DNA of 15,462 bases from Alphaproteobacteria bacterium (GTDB taxonomy: Bacteria; Pseudomonadota; Alphaproteobacteria; Micavibrionales; Micavibrionaceae). The stretch is taken from NCBI GenBank assembly GCA_030427765.1, contig JAUICS010000003.1:1-15462 (forward strand), given 5' to 3'. Positions 947-8,789 of the stretch are shown piece after piece. Under the pieces are notes generated by a model. It saw nothing but the letters and a program-made list of their open reading frames with translations, was not told the origin of the DNA and did no database searches. Each line of letters begins with the position of its first letter. The first letter of the stretch is position 1. Position numbers and translations under genes: made by a program.

Positions 947-2173
947 TTATTCTCGTAAGAATGAAAATAACGAACGCTTTGATTTGTTCTTTTTACCGGT
1001 TTTCGGGTTGCGTTTGTCATCGTAATTGGACGAAAGAAGCTGGCATAAATCATCCAGCCTGCTTTTATTTTCATCCATGATCAGATTGGCAAAATTATGA
1101 AGTTTTTCAAGGTTATCCGGACTGGCATCGTCAATCTGCTCATTCGGGGTGCTCATGGGGTCGTCACTGGCCAGCATAGTACGGTTAAACACGTATAAGT
1201 GATCGCCGACTTCCTTCGCAAAAGCATCCATAAGTGCCGATTCCGATGCGTGGAAAAAGATATTGATGAGGGGAAAGTCGTTAACGGGGTCCACAACGCC
1301 CAGACTGCCAAAACGGTTCCAGTCTTCATGTTTGAATGACCGGTGCGTATAACCGGTACCAAGGATAATCATGATGACCTCTGTATCATCCTTGATATGT
1401 GGGCGAAGGGCACCAAGATAACTGATACACGGGTTATCGAATATTGACCCGTCAATTCCGGAATACGAAATCATGGAACTGTCGTTATCGGGTTTGACCT
1501 GAAAATGATGGCACGGAAAAAATGTTGGCGCGGCCGTACTGGCCATGACGGCATCAACAAGTGATACGCTAGGTGCGGCCTGTGATTTACGAATATGTGG
1601 AAATTTCAGGTTCTTTAGCCAAACGGCATGCCCGCCGCCATCGACCATATTGTTGGTTGTCCGGACAGGAGTCTCATCGGTGTCATCACGTTCCTTGGCC
1701 AAATTCATCTGCTGCCCGTCAATGTTGTAGGTCGGTATAACCAAACTGCATAGCGTGTCCTGGAGGGACAGCTTACCGTACATATTGCGCAGTGCCCTGT
1801 GCAGATTTGTGGGATCATAATGTCCGTGTTTCATGAGCCAATTTAACTGACTAAGGCGCATTGTACGGTTGTTAAAGTCATGAATGAATGACCGGAACTT
1901 ACGGTATTTATCAGTTGTAAAGATTTTAATGCCCTGACGTTCATAAAAACGCACCATATGCCGTGCTTTGAATCGTGGGCGGTCGGGGTAATGTGGGTGG
2001 GGGACGTTCAAACCGGAATTGATAATCGCGCCGGTGGATGGGCCCATGAATACGTCAACCATATCGGCCATGGCCAATCCGGTGCGTTCTTCTATTGTGG
2101 CCATAATGTGCGCGGCAACCAATCCGCGCATACCGCCACCGTATGTAAATAATGCGATTATGCGATCTGTCAT
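947..2173 (-). CDS. Patatin-like phospholipase / acyl hydrolase
   Basis: A 408-residue patatin-fold lipid acyl hydrolase, expected to cleave acyl esters of phospholipids or other lipids with a Ser-Asp dyad. The family signatures appear in order: glycine-rich oxyanion loop GGGMRG (12-17), nucleophile elbow GPSTG with Ser46, the conserved block ASTAAPTFFP (211-220), and the acid motif DGS with Asp241 (DGG/DGA in most members). The residue before the oxyanion loop is Tyr (TYGGG), where IDGGG or DGGG is usual. No signal peptide is visible. The C-terminus (about 387-404) is rich in Lys and Arg and could touch membranes or nucleic acid. There is no good Shine-Dalgarno; a promoter-like sequence sits so close to the ATG that the message may be leaderless. 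Patatins occur as effectors of some anti-phage systems, but no cyclase, sensor or other defence gene is nearby, so a metabolic role is more likely. Confidence 0.85.
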   Translation of the reverse strand: MTDRIIALFTYGGGMRGLVAAHIMATIEERTGLAMADMVDVFMGPSTGAIINSGLNVPHPHYPDRPRFKARHMVRFYERQGIKIFTTDKYRKFRSFIHDFNNRTMRLSQLNWLMKHGHYDPTNLHRALRNMYGKLSLQDTLCSLVIPTYNIDGQQMNLAKERDDTDETPVRTTNNMVDGGGHAVWLKNLKFPHIRKSQAAPSVSLVDAVMASTAAPTFFPCHHFQVKPDNDSSMISYSGIDGSIFDNPCISYLGALRPHIKDDTEVIMIILGTGYTHRSFKHEDWNRFGSLGVVDPVNDFPLINIFFHASESALMDAFAKEVGDHLYVFNRTMLASDDPMSTPNEQIDDASPDNLEKLHNFANLIMDENKSRLDDLCQLLSSNYDDKRNPKTGKKNKSKRSLFSFLRE

Positions 2174-2262: not shown

Positions 2263-2293
2263 AAAAAAATACCGGGGCAGAAATCTGACCCGG
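2263..2293 (-). terminator. Strong rho-independent terminator
   Basis: Reading leftward, CCGGG (2293-2289) pairs with CCCGG (2276-2272). One U/C mismatch follows, then CAG/CUG pairs closed by an AUUU loop. The stem is followed by UA and seven U residues (2269-2263). It ends any transcript coming from lysR or from the candidate sRNA, and isolates the patatin gene. Confidence 0.85.
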
Positions 2294-2360
2294 CGAGTTG
2301 AACAGGGAGGTTTCACGTCTGGGAGACGTTGGGCGCAATGCCCAGCAACCGAAGTTGCAA
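2263..2360 (-). ncRNA. Candidate trans-acting sRNA with anti-Shine-Dalgarno loop (AbcR-like?)
   Basis: No reading frame of note exists here, but the minus strand forms a chain of hairpins. These are: GCAAC-UUCG-GUUGC (2358-2345, a C(UUCG)G tetraloop); UGGGC-AUUGC-GCCCA (2344-2330); ACGUCU-CCC-AGACGU (2329-2315); a weaker hairpin GUGAA...UUCAAC (2316-2297, sharing two bases with the one before) whose loop is ACCUCCCUG; and the U-tailed terminator. A -10-like TATATA (2372-2367) without a good -35 would give a 5' end near 2360 and an RNA of about 100 nt. The CCUCCC loop is complementary to ribosome-binding sites, the hallmark of several alphaproteobacterial sRNAs. From what is known of Rhizobiales, the AbcR (alpha-r15) sRNAs lie beside the lsrB/vtlR gene and are activated by it; here the neighbour is that type of regulator. 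Family membership is inferred from position and design, not from an alignment. Confidence 0.6.
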
Positions 2361-2402
2361 GAGCTTTATATACTTAAACGGACCTTCGGGACCACAGTGG
2401 TT

Positions 2403-2423
2403 TTTGCATGATAGGCATGCAAA
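2403..2423. promoter_or_regulatory. Perfect 8-bp inverted repeat, candidate activator site for the sRNA
   Basis: TTTGCATG, five bases (ATAGG on the plus strand), then CATGCAAA: a perfect dyad. Its centre lies about 53 bp upstream of the inferred sRNA start (near 2360), where LysR-type activators usually bind. The sRNA promoter lacks a recognisable -35, as expected for an activator-dependent promoter. A further TAGGCAT copy occurs at 2435-2441, repeating the one at 2412-2418. Confidence 0.4.
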
Positions 2424-2493
2424 TTATGCATATCTAGGCATTTCTGTTGTTGTTTCAGTCATTTAGATGGTTTTTACAACCATAAAAAATGTA
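2424..2493. other. Gene-free spacer downstream of lysR
   Basis: This AT-rich stretch separates the dyad from the lysR stop. The only structure noted is an inverted repeat ATGGTT-N5-AACCAT at 2467-2483, not followed by a U-run in either direction. With the items at 2180-2423 it completes the gene-free stretch 2174-2493; the remaining piece, 2209-2262, shows nothing recognisable. Confidence 0.5.
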
Positions 2494-3387
2494 TTAAAAA
2501 TCGGTTTGAGCGATGTTTTTAATCAAGAAATCGCGGAAAATCGCTATTCTTTGTGAATGGCGACGCTCTTCTGAATACACAAAATACATCTCGACAGGCT
2601 CGCGCTGGAGGTCCGGGAATAGAATTTCAAGGTTTGGATTGCTTTTGATCATATAATCCGGCAGGGCGGCGATACCGGCCCCATCATTTACGGCGCGTTC
2701 AATGGCGGAAATGGAGTTAATCAAGATTAAATTGTTGGTCGATTTCAAATCAACATCTGCCACTTGTAATATCCAGTTTGGGTTTTGGAACGGGCTTAAT
2801 GTGTCATCTGGAAACGCAATCAATGTATGGTCGGCCAAATCTTCCGGACTTTGGGGATACCCGTATAACTCAAGATATGATTTCGAGGCCGTAATGTGGA
2901 AATGGATAGTTGTTAAATGGCGCTGGATTAAATCCGGCTGTTTCGGGCGTTGCAAACGAATGGCGGCATCGGCCTCTCGCATACCTAAGTTCAGGATACG
3001 GTCGTCGAGAATAAATGTAAGCTGTAGGTCGGGATGTTCTTTACGCAGTATATGCAGTTTTGGTGCAAGCCATGTCGATCCGATAAAGTCGGCAAGCGTA
3101 ATACGCAGTGGCCCTTTTGGAAGTTTTTTAGTGTCCAGAAGTTTACCTTCGATAATTGACAGGCTGGTGAAAATATCGCTGGTGGTTTTGTGGAGGAGCT
3201 CCCCTTGCTCTGTTAACTTCAAACCGCGTGCGTGGCGGTGGAACAGAGTCAGGCCCAAATTTTCTTCAAGCGCGATGATTTGACGTGATACGGCAGATTG
3301 GCTGGAGTGCAGTGCTTCTCCGGCTTTTGTAAAGCTTCCCGCCTCGGCCACGGCATGAAATATTCGTAATTTATCCCAATCAAGCAT
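2494..3387 (-). CDS. LysR-type regulator, LsrB/VtlR-like
   Basis: A 297-residue LysR-family transcription factor. The N-terminal winged helix-turn-helix (about 1-60: FTKAGEALHSSQSAVSRQI) is followed by a linker helix and a periplasmic-binding-protein-like sensor domain (about 92-290). The stretches LDWDKLRIFHAVAEAGSFT, LFHRHARGLKLTEQGELL and MREADAAIRLQRPKQPDLIQ resemble the LsrB/VtlR group of alphaproteobacteria, which controls sRNA, envelope and oxidative-stress genes in Rhizobiales. The trxB neighbour also fits that group. The protein contains no cysteine at all, so it cannot use a thiol switch of the type reported for LsrB. Transcription probably starts in the 82-bp gap behind trxB; a dyad just upstream of the ATG suggests autoregulation. 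No terminator lies directly behind the gene, so read-through into the sRNA is possible. LysR membership is certain; the subgroup is a recollection of conserved sequence. Confidence 0.88.
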   Translation of the reverse strand: MLDWDKLRIFHAVAEAGSFTKAGEALHSSQSAVSRQIIALEENLGLTLFHRHARGLKLTEQGELLHKTTSDIFTSLSIIEGKLLDTKKLPKGPLRITLADFIGSTWLAPKLHILRKEHPDLQLTFILDDRILNLGMREADAAIRLQRPKQPDLIQRHLTTIHFHITASKSYLELYGYPQSPEDLADHTLIAFPDDTLSPFQNPNWILQVADVDLKSTNNLILINSISAIERAVNDGAGIAALPDYMIKSNPNLEILFPDLQREPVEMYFVYSEERRHSQRIAIFRDFLIKNIAQTDF

Positions 3388-3439: not shown

Positions 3440-3475
3440 TAATTTCTACTCTAACTTCTACTCAATCTTTTACTC
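3440..3475. repeat. Three imperfect 12-bp tandem repeats at the end of trxB
   Basis: TAATTTCTACTC (3440-3451), TAACTTCTACTC (3452-3463) and AATCTTTTACTC (3464-3475). The first two share 11 of 12 bases and the third matches the first at 8 of 12. The third copy includes the trxB stop codon. Confidence 0.6.
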
Positions 3476-4435
3476 GGCGGCGTTTTGTAAATCGGTAGAT
3501 TTATGTTCTGCAAGGAAACGGTCGGCCTCCAGCGCGGCCATGCAACCCATACCGGCGGCCGTGACGGCCTGACGGTATACTTTATCCTTCACATCACCGG
3601 CGGCGTATACGCCCGCAATATTTGTTGCGGTTGAATCCGGCTTTGTGACAATGTAACCTTCATCGTCCATATCAATTTTGCCTTTGAATAGTTCCGTTGC
3701 CGGATCATGTCCGATGGCAACGAAGAATCCTTCGACATTGATTTCAGATGTCGTGTTATCTTTCACATTTTTAAGGCGTACACCCTTCACCCCCGCATCA
3801 TCGCCAAGGACTTCCTCAACCACTGAATCCCAAATAACATTGATTTTCGGGTTGTTGAACAAACGTTCCTGCATAATACGTTCGGCGCGAAGCTCATCAC
3901 GGCGGTGAACCAGATTTACCTTCTCACAGAAATTCGTTAAAAATAAGGCTTCCTCAACCGCGGTATTGCCACCGCCGATGACTGCGACTTCTTTTCCTCG
4001 GTAGAAAAATCCGTCACAGGTGGCACAGGCGGAGACACCTTTGTTCATAAACGCTTCTTCCGATGGCAGGCCAAGCCATCGTGCCTTTGCACCTGTGGCA
4101 ATGATAATTGTATCGGCCTCGAATTCCGTTCCGCCATCTGATTTTGCCTTGAACGGACGGGATGAAAAATCAACTTCCGTAATCATGTCATGAATGGTTT
4201 CTGTGCCAACATTTTCGGCCTGTTTTTGCATCTGTTCCATCAGCCATGGACCCTGTACCATATCGGCAAAGCCAGGGTAATTTTCAACATCGGTTGTGAT
4301 GGTAAGCTGGCCGCCCGGCTGTATACCCATGACCTGAATTGGTTTTAAATTGGCGCGTGCCGCATAAATGGCGGCGGTAAAACCGGCTGGGCCGGACCCG
4401 ATAATAAGAACTTTTGTTTTCTTGACCTCTGACAT
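3470..4435 (-). CDS. trxB: Thioredoxin reductase
   Basis: A low-molecular-weight FAD- and NADPH-dependent thioredoxin reductase, which passes electrons from NADPH to oxidised thioredoxin in the cytoplasm. In the 324-residue numbering from ATG 4444: FAD Rossmann motif GSGPAG (16-21), redox-active CATC (140-143), NADPH-binding GGGNTA (157-162) with HRRDELRA (180-187), and the C-terminal FAD motif VYAAGDVKD (279-287). All are intact and the length is typical. I prefer ATG 4435 (product begins MSEVKKTKVLIIG, 321 residues): GGAtGGA lies a few bases before it, whereas 4444 has no ribosome-binding site. A promoter-like sequence precedes the gene, so it is probably transcribed separately from mltG. 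lysR follows on the same strand after 82 bp. The trxB-lsrB pairing suggests a link to redox balance, though that is inference. Confidence 0.96.
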   Translation of the reverse strand: MSEVKKTKVLIIGSGPAGFTAAIYAARANLKPIQVMGIQPGGQLTITTDVENYPGFADMVQGPWLMEQMQKQAENVGTETIHDMITEVDFSSRPFKAKSDGGTEFEADTIIIATGAKARWLGLPSEEAFMNKGVSACATCDGFFYRGKEVAVIGGGNTAVEEALFLTNFCEKVNLVHRRDELRAERIMQERLFNNPKINVIWDSVVEEVLGDDAGVKGVRLKNVKDNTTSEINVEGFFVAIGHDPATELFKGKIDMDDEGYIVTKPDSTATNIAGVYAAGDVKDKVYRQAVTAAGMGCMAALEADRFLAEHKSTDLQNAAE

Positions 4436-4465
4436 AATTTCCATCCGTGAAATGATTATTCAATT

Positions 4466-8042: not shown

Positions 8043-8789
8043 TTATTCAACTCCTATATGGTTAACTTTGAATTCTTTGAGTCTTAATTTTGACTGATGG
8101 TCCTCTGCCCCCACACTGCCGTCCGGTCTTAAGCCCTTGAAATAATCCTTTTGCCATTTTTGGGCGACGGCTTCACTCTCCGGGTCCCGCAAATCTTTGA
8201 CGAATTTGTTACGCCGTTTTGACCAGATGTCATGTTCTTTTTTTAACTCCGGATTTGCGTCGAACGGATGCATTTCCGGTTTGAATTCTTTAAGCTCATT
8301 CCGTTTTATAGGAAAAAATGAGCAAAATGGCTCCCCCTCTTCGAATGTTATCCATTCATTTTTGCGGGTAATTTGCCAGTTCATTGTAAAACTATAGGGT
8401 GCCCAGTCGGTTTCAATAATGCCCTGAAGTGGAGAAATGCCGTCTTTCGGGCTGTTCGGCGGGCCGGATACGTACATATTCCATCCGGGCTCGGTTTGAA
8501 ATAATCCATGTATGACAAAGGTTAGGATGCCGTTTCCAAAAACACTGGTACACACATGTTTTAGAAATTTGGTTGCGCGGAATGTAATGGCCTCAAGCCC
8601 ATCTTCACCATTCCACTTAACCGAAAATGTTTCGGTGCAATGTATTGACCAGCCGTGGGAATTGGCAATATTCAATGGTAGGCACCGATAAGCAAACTTT
8701 CCTGGCGATTCGTCCATCCATTCGCGTGTTGGTGAATTTGCGCGGATGTCGACTTGCTTTAAATTATCGGTGTAGAAATTTAACTTCAT
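8043..8789 (-). CDS. Uncharacterised DUF6065-like protein inside the fab operon
   Basis: A 248-residue soluble protein of unknown function. I recognise a resemblance to the uncharacterised DUF6065 family by its blocks: REWMDESPGKFAYRCLPL (22-39), IANSHGW (41-47), VKWNG (57-61), FGNGILTF (84-91), SGPPNSPKDGISPLQGIIET (108-127), YSFTMNWQITR (132-142) and FEEGEPFCSFFP (149-160). The last 60 residues are charged and contain WQKDYFKG (212-219) and HQSKLRLKEF (231-240). No catalytic motif of a known enzyme, signal peptide or membrane helix is seen; the Trp- and aromatic-rich middle suggests a compact beta fold. Its ATG overlaps the fabD stop (ATGA) and its stop lies one base before the fabG ATG, so it is made together with both. 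A role in lipid synthesis is inferred only from this position. The reading frame is certain, the family assignment fairly likely. Confidence 0.85.
   Translation of the reverse strand: MKLNFYTDNLKQVDIRANSPTREWMDESPGKFAYRCLPLNIANSHGWSIHCTETFSVKWNGEDGLEAITFRATKFLKHVCTSVFGNGILTFVIHGLFQTEPGWNMYVSGPPNSPKDGISPLQGIIETDWAPYSFTMNWQITRKNEWITFEEGEPFCSFFPIKRNELKEFKPEMHPFDANPELKKEHDIWSKRRNKFVKDLRDPESEAVAQKWQKDYFKGLRPDGSVGAEDHQSKLRLKEFKVNHIGVE

What the first reader, a model, noticed from the sequence alone, without database searches (positions are those of the whole stretch)
2263..2360. Candidate AbcR-like anti-Shine-Dalgarno sRNA beside an LsrB/VtlR-type regulator
The sequence shows five stem-loops in about 100 nt on the minus strand: a C(UUCG)G hairpin, two short perfect stems, a weaker hairpin exposing CCUCCC, and a terminator with seven Us. 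In Rhizobiales the AbcR/alpha-r15 sRNAs lie next to lsrB/vtlR and depend on it. Finding the same layout outside an obvious rhizobial context would suggest an old regulator-sRNA module controlling many transporter mRNAs. Family membership is inferred from position and structure.
Basis: partly seen in the sequence, partly recalled or inferred. Interest (0 to 1): 0.75.

Follow-up and report, generated by a model that had tools for sequence, protein, structure and literature searches.

The report
Widespread small RNA beside LsrB/VtlR regulator
A short regulatory RNA sits behind a gene-switch protein here; the same pair recurs in many Alphaproteobacteria, so a control system known from nitrogen-fixing and host-associated bacteria is probably older and wider than described.

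Summary
The feature is real. Window 2263-2360 (minus) encodes a small-RNA gene: three hairpins, an exposed GAAACCUCCCUGUUCAACU stretch and a terminator, directly behind a LysR gene that follows trxB. The core lies there in 27 of 30 LysR loci of the order, window included. A model built from it hits 125 of 289 genomes of the class; in 85 of the 104 with a listed LysR it is within 600 nt downstream. Twelve of 13 base pairs change on both sides. The LysR is the LsrB/VtlR orthologue: in a genome with true AbcR genes its only hit sits beside them. The published LsrB box and a palindrome lie at the matching promoter position. In the order, 28 of 30 RNA loci of LysR-bearing genomes keep the palindrome within one mismatch (21 exactly); 0 of 7 LysR-less do. 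Outside the order this test is mixed. It is not a member of Rfam ar15 (AbcR). SorX scores as a relative. No Rfam family reached its cut-off at the window, and no paper text held six core strings. Transcription, activation and targets are inferred; my target search gave no signal.

The parts
2263..2360 (-). small RNA gene, about 98 nt (5' end estimated from the -10 box)
   Evidence: core in 27 of 30 LysR loci of the order, window included; fold z -3.30; covariation (weaker); start inferred, not measured
2345..2358 (-). hairpin 1, GCAAC-UUCG-GUUGC
   Evidence: the place is occupied by hairpins of other sequence in many relatives
2330..2344 (-). hairpin 2, UGGGC-AUUGC-GCCCA
   Evidence: sequence varies, a hairpin is predicted there in many relatives
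2315..2329 (-). hairpin 3, ACGUCU-CCC-AGACGU, first anti-SD motif (CUCCC) in loop and upper stem
   Evidence: strongly conserved in the alignment of 27 (L021 departs); 5 of 6 pairs with two-sided changes across the class
2296..2314 (-). unpaired second anti-SD stretch GAAACCUCCCUGUUCAACU, proposed main seed
   Evidence: AACCUCCCUGUU invariant in 27 sequences; ACCUCCCUGUU shared with SorX
2263..2293 (-). Rho-independent terminator with seven U
   Evidence: 7 of 7 stem pairs with two-sided changes across the class; not listed by the simple scan
2367..2372 (-). -10 box TATATA
   Evidence: GTATATAA is the majority consensus of 27 sequences; motif match only
2417..2431 (-). palindrome ATGCATAATTTGCAT, proposed LysR site
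   Evidence: ATGC-N7-GCAT exact in 110 of 143 class loci, shuffles mean 1.3, max 4; in the order kept in LysR-bearing and not in LysR-less genomes
2408..2420 (-). LsrB/VtlR box GCATGCCTATCAT (published GCAT-N3-TG-N3-T, one mismatch here)
   Evidence: about -60 to -48 from the estimated start, against -61 to -49 in S. meliloti (PMC8844928 passages)
2494..3387 (-). LysR regulator, LsrB/VtlR orthologue, 297 aa, no cysteine
3470..4444 (-). trxB, thioredoxin reductase, upstream neighbour as at lsrB/vtlR
   Evidence: TIGR01292 427.7 bits, cut-off 343.45
947..2173 (-). patatin-like phospholipase, downstream neighbour (synteny marker only)
   Evidence: PF01734; found in 21 of the 30 LysR loci of the order

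Best explanation
The locus is a regulator-sRNA module of the LsrB/VtlR-AbcR type. The LysR encoded at 2494-3387 binds the ATGC-N7-GCAT / GCAT-N3-TG-N3-T site at 2408-2431 and switches on a promoter with a good -10 and a poor -35 box. The product is a roughly 98-nt trans-acting RNA. With Hfq it pairs its two C-rich stretches (CUCCC in the hairpin-3 loop; the unpaired GAAACCUCCCUGUUCAACU) with ribosome-binding sites and lowers translation of a set of mRNAs, most plausibly for uptake of nutrients. Shown by computation: conserved RNA, covarying pairs, linkage to the LysR, box at the matching position, and, within the window's order, absence of the site where the LysR gene is gone. Inferred: transcription, direct activation, Hfq use, targets.
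For: RNA: core in 27 of 30 LysR loci; 33 of the 37 genomes of the family, window included (counted); 125 of 289 of the class; 12 of 13 pairs with two-sided changes, 196 two-sided cells against 42.3 in shuffles. Linkage: of 104 R1 genomes with a listed LysR, 85 within 600 nt downstream on the same strand, 13 more within 6 kb, 6 elsewhere. Regulator identity: the only LysR hit of G362 lies directly upstream of two ar15 hits of 127 and 119 bits. Site: exact box in 11 of 26 loci of the order against a shuffle mean of 0.43, max 3; exact palindrome in 110 of 143 class loci against max 4. Dependence: 28 of 30 RNA loci of LysR-bearing genomes keep the palindrome within one mismatch (21 exactly), 0 of 7 of LysR-less genomes; -35 matches are higher in the LysR-less (Mann-Whitney p 0.0009). 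In G001 and G011 the RNA follows trxB with no LysR between; in G030 and G033 the RNA is away from the LysR but keeps the palindrome. Hfq is in 34 of 38 genomes and 31 of 31 of good quality.
Against: No RNA data for this organism or for any LysR-linked member. Hfq was not found in the window's own draft genome (77% complete). The window's box has one mismatch, and in the class the exact box is in only 25 of 143 loci (shuffle mean 2.8, max 7). A seed pattern before ATG gave 3 sites against 2 reversed controls. Outside the order G206 has the exact palindrome at both RNA loci without a LysR at E<=1e-45, and L340 (G182) has one mismatch. Of 80 named loci 10 have no LysR upstream although 950 nt or more were held. 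The p-values treat genomes as independent. The LsrB redox cysteines are absent, so the signal must differ.
Confidence: 0.82

Rival explanations
1. Processed 3' UTR of lysR: the RNA is cut from the lysR mRNA (as SorX from an OmpR-type mRNA) and has no promoter of its own.
For: It lies behind lysR on the same strand. SorX, a relative by R2, is cut from RSP_0847 mRNA (PMC9438474 passages) and lies just behind a response-regulator gene (PF00072 plus PF00486) in L091 and L092.
Against: A conserved -10 and box/palindrome lie between lysR and the RNA. The RNA persists without lysR beside it (G001, G011, G031, G030, G033), and -35 boxes match better where the LysR is lost. A consensus scan found promoter-like sites no oftener than shuffles.
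Confidence: 0.08
2. True AbcR/alpha-r15 member.
For: Same locus, same box, two anti-SD stretches.
Against: ar15 model: no hit at the window even at E<=10 and 0 of 289 class genomes (strict filter, no positive control rang there). R2 gives nothing up to E 1 in the true AbcR locus L185. The AbcR middle hairpin and UUCCCCUC motif are missing.
Confidence: 0.04
3. Leader hairpins and a terminator of the downstream patatin gene (cis element), not a trans-acting sRNA.
For: The patatin gene follows in 21 of 30 loci of the order.
Against: In the 26 loci of other families no patatin was found within the stretch held, while 19 carry CCTCCCTG behind the LysR. The terminator closes the unit, and conservation peaks in an unpaired anti-SD stretch.
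Confidence: 0.03

Closest known systems
VtlR/LsrB-AbcR1/2 (alpha-r15, Rfam RF02345) of Rhizobiaceae and Brucellaceae
   Same: trxB-LysR-sRNA order, orthologous LysR, GCAT-N3-TG-N3-T box at about -60, two anti-SD stretches, terminator
   Different: Different sequence and fold: CUCCC in a short 3-nt-loop hairpin, CCUCCCUGUU unpaired before the terminator, no middle hairpin; one copy found here; LysR without cysteines
SorX (Rfam RF02784), Rhodobacter sphaeroides
   Same: ACCUCCCUGUU seed just before a GC-rich terminator; R2 finds SorX loci at E 4.9e-13 and 1.1e-12; Hfq-dependent, inhibits potA translation (PMC9438474 passages)
   Different: Comes from an OmpR-type mRNA 3' end and lacks hairpin 3; the window scores 20.1 bits against a cut-off of 46.6
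alpha-R8 (SisA-D of Caulobacter)
   Same: sRNA family of the class with an unpaired CCUCCCU stretch before a terminator (PMC12559287 section 7)
   Different: Core UUUCCUCCCU, mostly next to an FGase gene, no shared promoter motif among SisA-D; here GAAACCUCCCUGUU, next to lsrB/vtlR with a conserved site
ar14 (RF02344; that NfeR1 belongs here is recalled)
   Same: C-rich anti-SD loops
   Different: Not among the window's hits; CCUCCUCCC in the loops (model consensus printed)

Membership tests
AbcR / alpha-r15 (RF02345) | covariance model at or above 40 bits | tested here: not met
   no hit at the window or in G000; positive control L185 127 bits
AbcR / alpha-r15 (RF02345) | encoded directly behind trxB-lsrB/vtlR | tested here: met
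   same arrangement in L185
AbcR / alpha-r15 (RF02345) | LsrB box about -61 to -49 | tested here: inconclusive
   one mismatch in the window at about -60 to -48 of an estimated start; exact in 11 of 26 loci of the order; binding not testable
AbcR / alpha-r15 (RF02345) | aSD1 in 5' hairpin loop, aSD2 UUCCCCUC, middle hairpin, then terminator | tested here: not met
   two aSD stretches but other sequence and order, no middle hairpin
AbcR / alpha-r15 (RF02345) | multiple copies per genome (PMC3712013 passage) | tested here: not met
   one R1 match in the window's 77%-complete genome; tandem copies in G197 (3) and G277 (2)
AbcR / alpha-r15 (RF02345) | represses ABC-transporter mRNAs | tested here: inconclusive
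   crude seed search gave 3 sites against 2 controls; repression itself not testable
LsrB/VtlR regulator | orthologue of the LysR beside AbcR, with trxB upstream | tested here: met
   trxB in 27 of 30, 21 of 26 and 28 of 31 LysR loci
LsrB/VtlR regulator | conserved redox cysteines (C144, C273 in Agrobacterium, PMC11975290 passages) | tested here: not met
   window LysR has no cysteine; Cys in 3 and 2 of 65 sequences at the columns of L185 residues 140 and 269; equating these with C144/C273 is inferred
SorX (RF02784) | covariance model at or above 46.6 bits | tested here: not met
   20.1 bits, E 0.014
SorX (RF02784) | 3' end of an OmpR-type mRNA | tested here: not met
   window RNA follows lysR
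alpha-R8 | core UUUCCUCCCU | tested here: not met
   window reads GAAACCUCCCU; definition
alpha-R8 | FGase gene adjacent (in most species) | tested here: not met
   neighbours are LysR and patatin
the new family (models R1, R2) | core hairpin, GAARCCUCCCUGUU, terminator | tested here: met
   window 81.1 bits, E 5.2e-15; the window is in the seed of R1, so this is by construction

The most novel reading that the evidence does not exclude
An LsrB/VtlR-activated anti-Shine-Dalgarno RNA was already part of the genome of the ancestor of most Alphaproteobacteria. AbcR1/2 of Rhizobiales and SorX of Rhodobacteraceae are its derived or relocated descendants; the redox cysteines of LsrB are a late addition, so the original signal was something else (for example a metabolite). 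The class would then have one old, GcvB-like regulator of uptake.
Probability: 0.5. Interest if true: 0.82.

Novelty: new variant of a known kind. Interest (0 to 1): 0.72.

Why it matters
AbcR sRNAs are described from Rhizobiaceae and Brucellaceae (PMC3712013 and PMC8844928 passages), and a 2025 paper heads a section 'LsrB is a LTTR unique to Rhizobiales', from selected species (PMC11975290 passages). Here the same regulator is found in 183 of 289 genomes of the class, often with a conserved RNA behind it. That makes the origin and first signal of a system tied to symbiosis and host colonisation testable in free-living bacteria such as Azospirillum. It points to a family that Rfam lacks and joins SorX to it. 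The lineages that lost the regulator but kept the RNA are a natural test of the regulatory link.

Tried and rejected
Rfam at gathering and permissive thresholds: no family over its cut-off. ar15 over 289 class genomes: 0, but under a strict filter and with no control ringing; only the later G362 hits showed that the model works on this collection. ar15 below its cut-off: G214, G358 and G350; the G350 hit lies behind the LysR. R1 and R2 on 35 Rhizobiales loci: best E 0.016 and 1.2e-4; the six R1 alignments shown lie mainly on the terminator, so no sequence homology to AbcR is claimed. Target search by CAGGGAGG-N(3-11)-ATG in the window's genome: 3 sites, reversed control 2; the frames there were not followed. 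PMC7685610 (A. brasilense sRNAs): three strings sought in the main text, none found. Six core strings in full texts: 0 papers; strings in figures or supplements would be missed. Promoter scan: no more promoter-like sites than in shuffles, so the -10 call rests on conservation. On A2 the number of further pair types was not above shuffles (9 against 8.0).

Full report
Observation. On the minus strand 2360-2263 the window folds into three hairpins, an unpaired C-rich stretch and a terminator with seven U (MFE -36.0, z -3.30, 0 of 200 shuffles as low). The gene before it is a LysR regulator (PF00126, PF03466), before that trxB (TIGR01292), and behind it a patatin-like phospholipase. Rfam gives nothing at its cut-offs; at permissive settings the best is SorX, 20.1 bits against 46.6, sharing ACCUCCCUGUU.

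Conservation in the window's order. The LysR was sought in 58 genomes, the window's own included: 33 have it at E<=1e-50, and I examined the 30 loci returned, the window among them. 27 of 30 carry CCTCCCTG followed by a T run behind the LysR, most of them with the full ACGTCTCCCAGACGTGAAACCTCCCTGTTCAACTCGCC core; missing at L019, L029 and L030. The genomes of L019 (G030) and L030 (G033) have it elsewhere; that of L029 (G015) has no hit. trxB is in 27 of 30 loci and the patatin gene in 21. The model R1 finds the RNA in 39 of the 58, 33 of 37 in the window's family by my count. The two 5' hairpins vary in sequence; fold z is -4.5 on average over 27 sequences, 60 shuffles each.

Conservation in the class. 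The LysR has a hit at E<=1e-45 in 183 of 289 genomes; by my count 11 of the 183 rows show more than one hit. R1 hits 125 of 289 genomes at E<=0.001, with a strict filter. For the 104 of these whose LysR place is in the listing, the RNA is within 600 nt downstream on the same strand in 85, within 6 kb in 13, elsewhere in 6. Of the other 21, 14 have a LysR whose place was cut from the listing and 7 have none. 46 listed LysR genomes had no R1 hit; I fetched 40 of these loci, and R2 later found an RNA at E<=0.001 in 11 of the 40. Names include Azospirillum brasilense, Magnetovibrio blakemorei, Kiloniella majae, Nisaea denitrificans, Inquilinus limosus, Roseospira, Belnapia, Reyranella and Micavibrio sp. 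UBA7657. In 58 of the 80 a LysR (over 42% identity, same strand) lies upstream, in 55 within 450 nt; of the 22 without, 12 have at most 623 nt of upstream DNA held and 10 have 950 nt or more.

Structure. On 105 class-wide matches (96 distinct) 97.6% of cells pair and 12 of 13 pairs have changes on both sides: 196 two-sided cells against 42.3 in shuffles and at most 62 in slid versions. That alignment was fitted to this structure, which favours it. On the MAFFT alignment of 27 sequences, 4 pairs have two-sided changes (shuffle mean 1.9) and 10 cells (2.7), while further pair types (9 against 8.0) are not above shuffles.

Which regulator. In the order of G214, 38 of 41 genomes have the LysR. In G362 ar15 (AbcR) scores 127, 119 and 112 bits, and our LysR's only hit there lies directly upstream of the first two, with trxB before it and GCATAACTGGCAT between. 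So the window's LysR is the LsrB/VtlR orthologue. Agrobacterium has the order trxB-vtlR-abcR1-abcR2 (PMC7486931 passages and section 10). S. meliloti LsrB activates abcR1 through GCAT-N3-TG-N3-T at -61 to -49 (PMC8844928 passages). In the window a one-mismatch box lies at about -60 to -48 from the start that I estimated from the -10 box.

The link between regulator and RNA. Exact boxes occur in 11 of 26 loci of the order (shuffle mean 0.43, max 3; one of 27 was too short and dropped). In the class the exact box is in 25 of 143 loci (mean 2.8, max 7), and ATGC-N7-GCAT in 110 of 143 (mean 1.3, max 4). Seven genomes of the order have the RNA but no LysR at E<=1e-50, and 32 have both. I compared the 7 with 30 of the 32; L334 (G017) gave no site and G005 was not fetched. 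None of the 7 promoters has the palindrome within one mismatch, against 28 of 30 (21 exact; Fisher p 3.5e-6), and the best -35 boxes of the 7 match better (p 0.0009; the whole promoter score only p 0.024). One mismatch is lenient, so the exact count matters. The TrxB tree (FastTree, supports not inspected) puts L325 and L326 together and L328 apart, so probably at least two losses in the family; f2 and G049 belong to other families, but were not put on a tree. Where the RNA sits away from the LysR but the LysR is in the genome (G030, G033), the palindrome stays. Outside the order the picture is mixed: of 8 RNA loci in 7 LysR-less genomes, 5 lack the palindrome, L340 has one mismatch, and both loci of G206 have it exactly.

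Relatives. R2, built from A5, finds SorX (L092 4.9e-13, L091 1.1e-12), which was not in the model. Both lie just behind a response-regulator gene, as SorX does. In 35 Rhizobiales loci R2 gives at best 1.2e-4, and nothing up to E 1 at true AbcR: common descent with AbcR is suggested by place and promoter, not by sequence. G197 and G277 carry three and two R1 hits in tandem, like AbcR1/2.

Mechanism. Best reading: LysR-activated, Hfq-assisted RNA whose C-rich stretches block ribosome-binding sites. AbcR and SorX are reported to act so on transporter mRNAs; for this family it is inference. Hfq is in 34 of 38 genomes and in 31 of 31 of good quality, but not in the window's 77%-complete draft. The LysR of the window lacks all cysteines, and the columns of the three L185 cysteines are cysteine in 3, 5 and 2 of 65 sequences, so the LsrB redox switch (PMC11975290 passages) is unlikely here.

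Novelty. [quoted passage not shown] The RNA outside Rhizobiales was in none of the passages that I saw, and six core strings were in no paper of the library. Sheehan and Caswell 2018 was not looked up, and the SorX paper and Overloper 2014 were not held, so prior mention cannot be excluded.

Noticed in passing
L325, L326, L328 (G001, G011, G031): No LysR lies between trxB and the RNA; the RNA is kept under promoters whose best -35 boxes read TTGACG, TTGACC and TAGACA. A natural regulator-loss experiment.
   Followed up: yes
L089, L090, L118 (family f40): Two or three tandem RNA copies behind the LysR, with C-rich hairpin loops, like AbcR1/2 tandems.
   Followed up: partly
L335, L337 (G013 C8, G009 C30): Second, shorter copies (CCUCCCUGUUCAACUCGCCGG plus terminator, no hairpin 3), perhaps behind reading frames like SorX.
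   Followed up: no
window 2494-3387 and L185: The LysR of the window has no cysteine; the cysteines of the AbcR-linked LysR (L185) are rare in the 65 orthologues aligned (3, 5 and 2), so redox sensing looks like a late addition.
   Followed up: partly
window 947-2173: Patatin-like phospholipase with weak likeness to CBASS lipase (98 bits, cut-off 200), behind the RNA in 21 of 30 loci of the order and in Micavibrio sp. UBA7657 (L195), which suggests a Micavibrio-like host for the window (not tested further).
   Followed up: partly
window 8043-8789: DUF6065 protein (PF19541, E 9.9e-97) between fabD- and fabG-like genes (these two names are from reading the sequence); function unknown.
   Followed up: no
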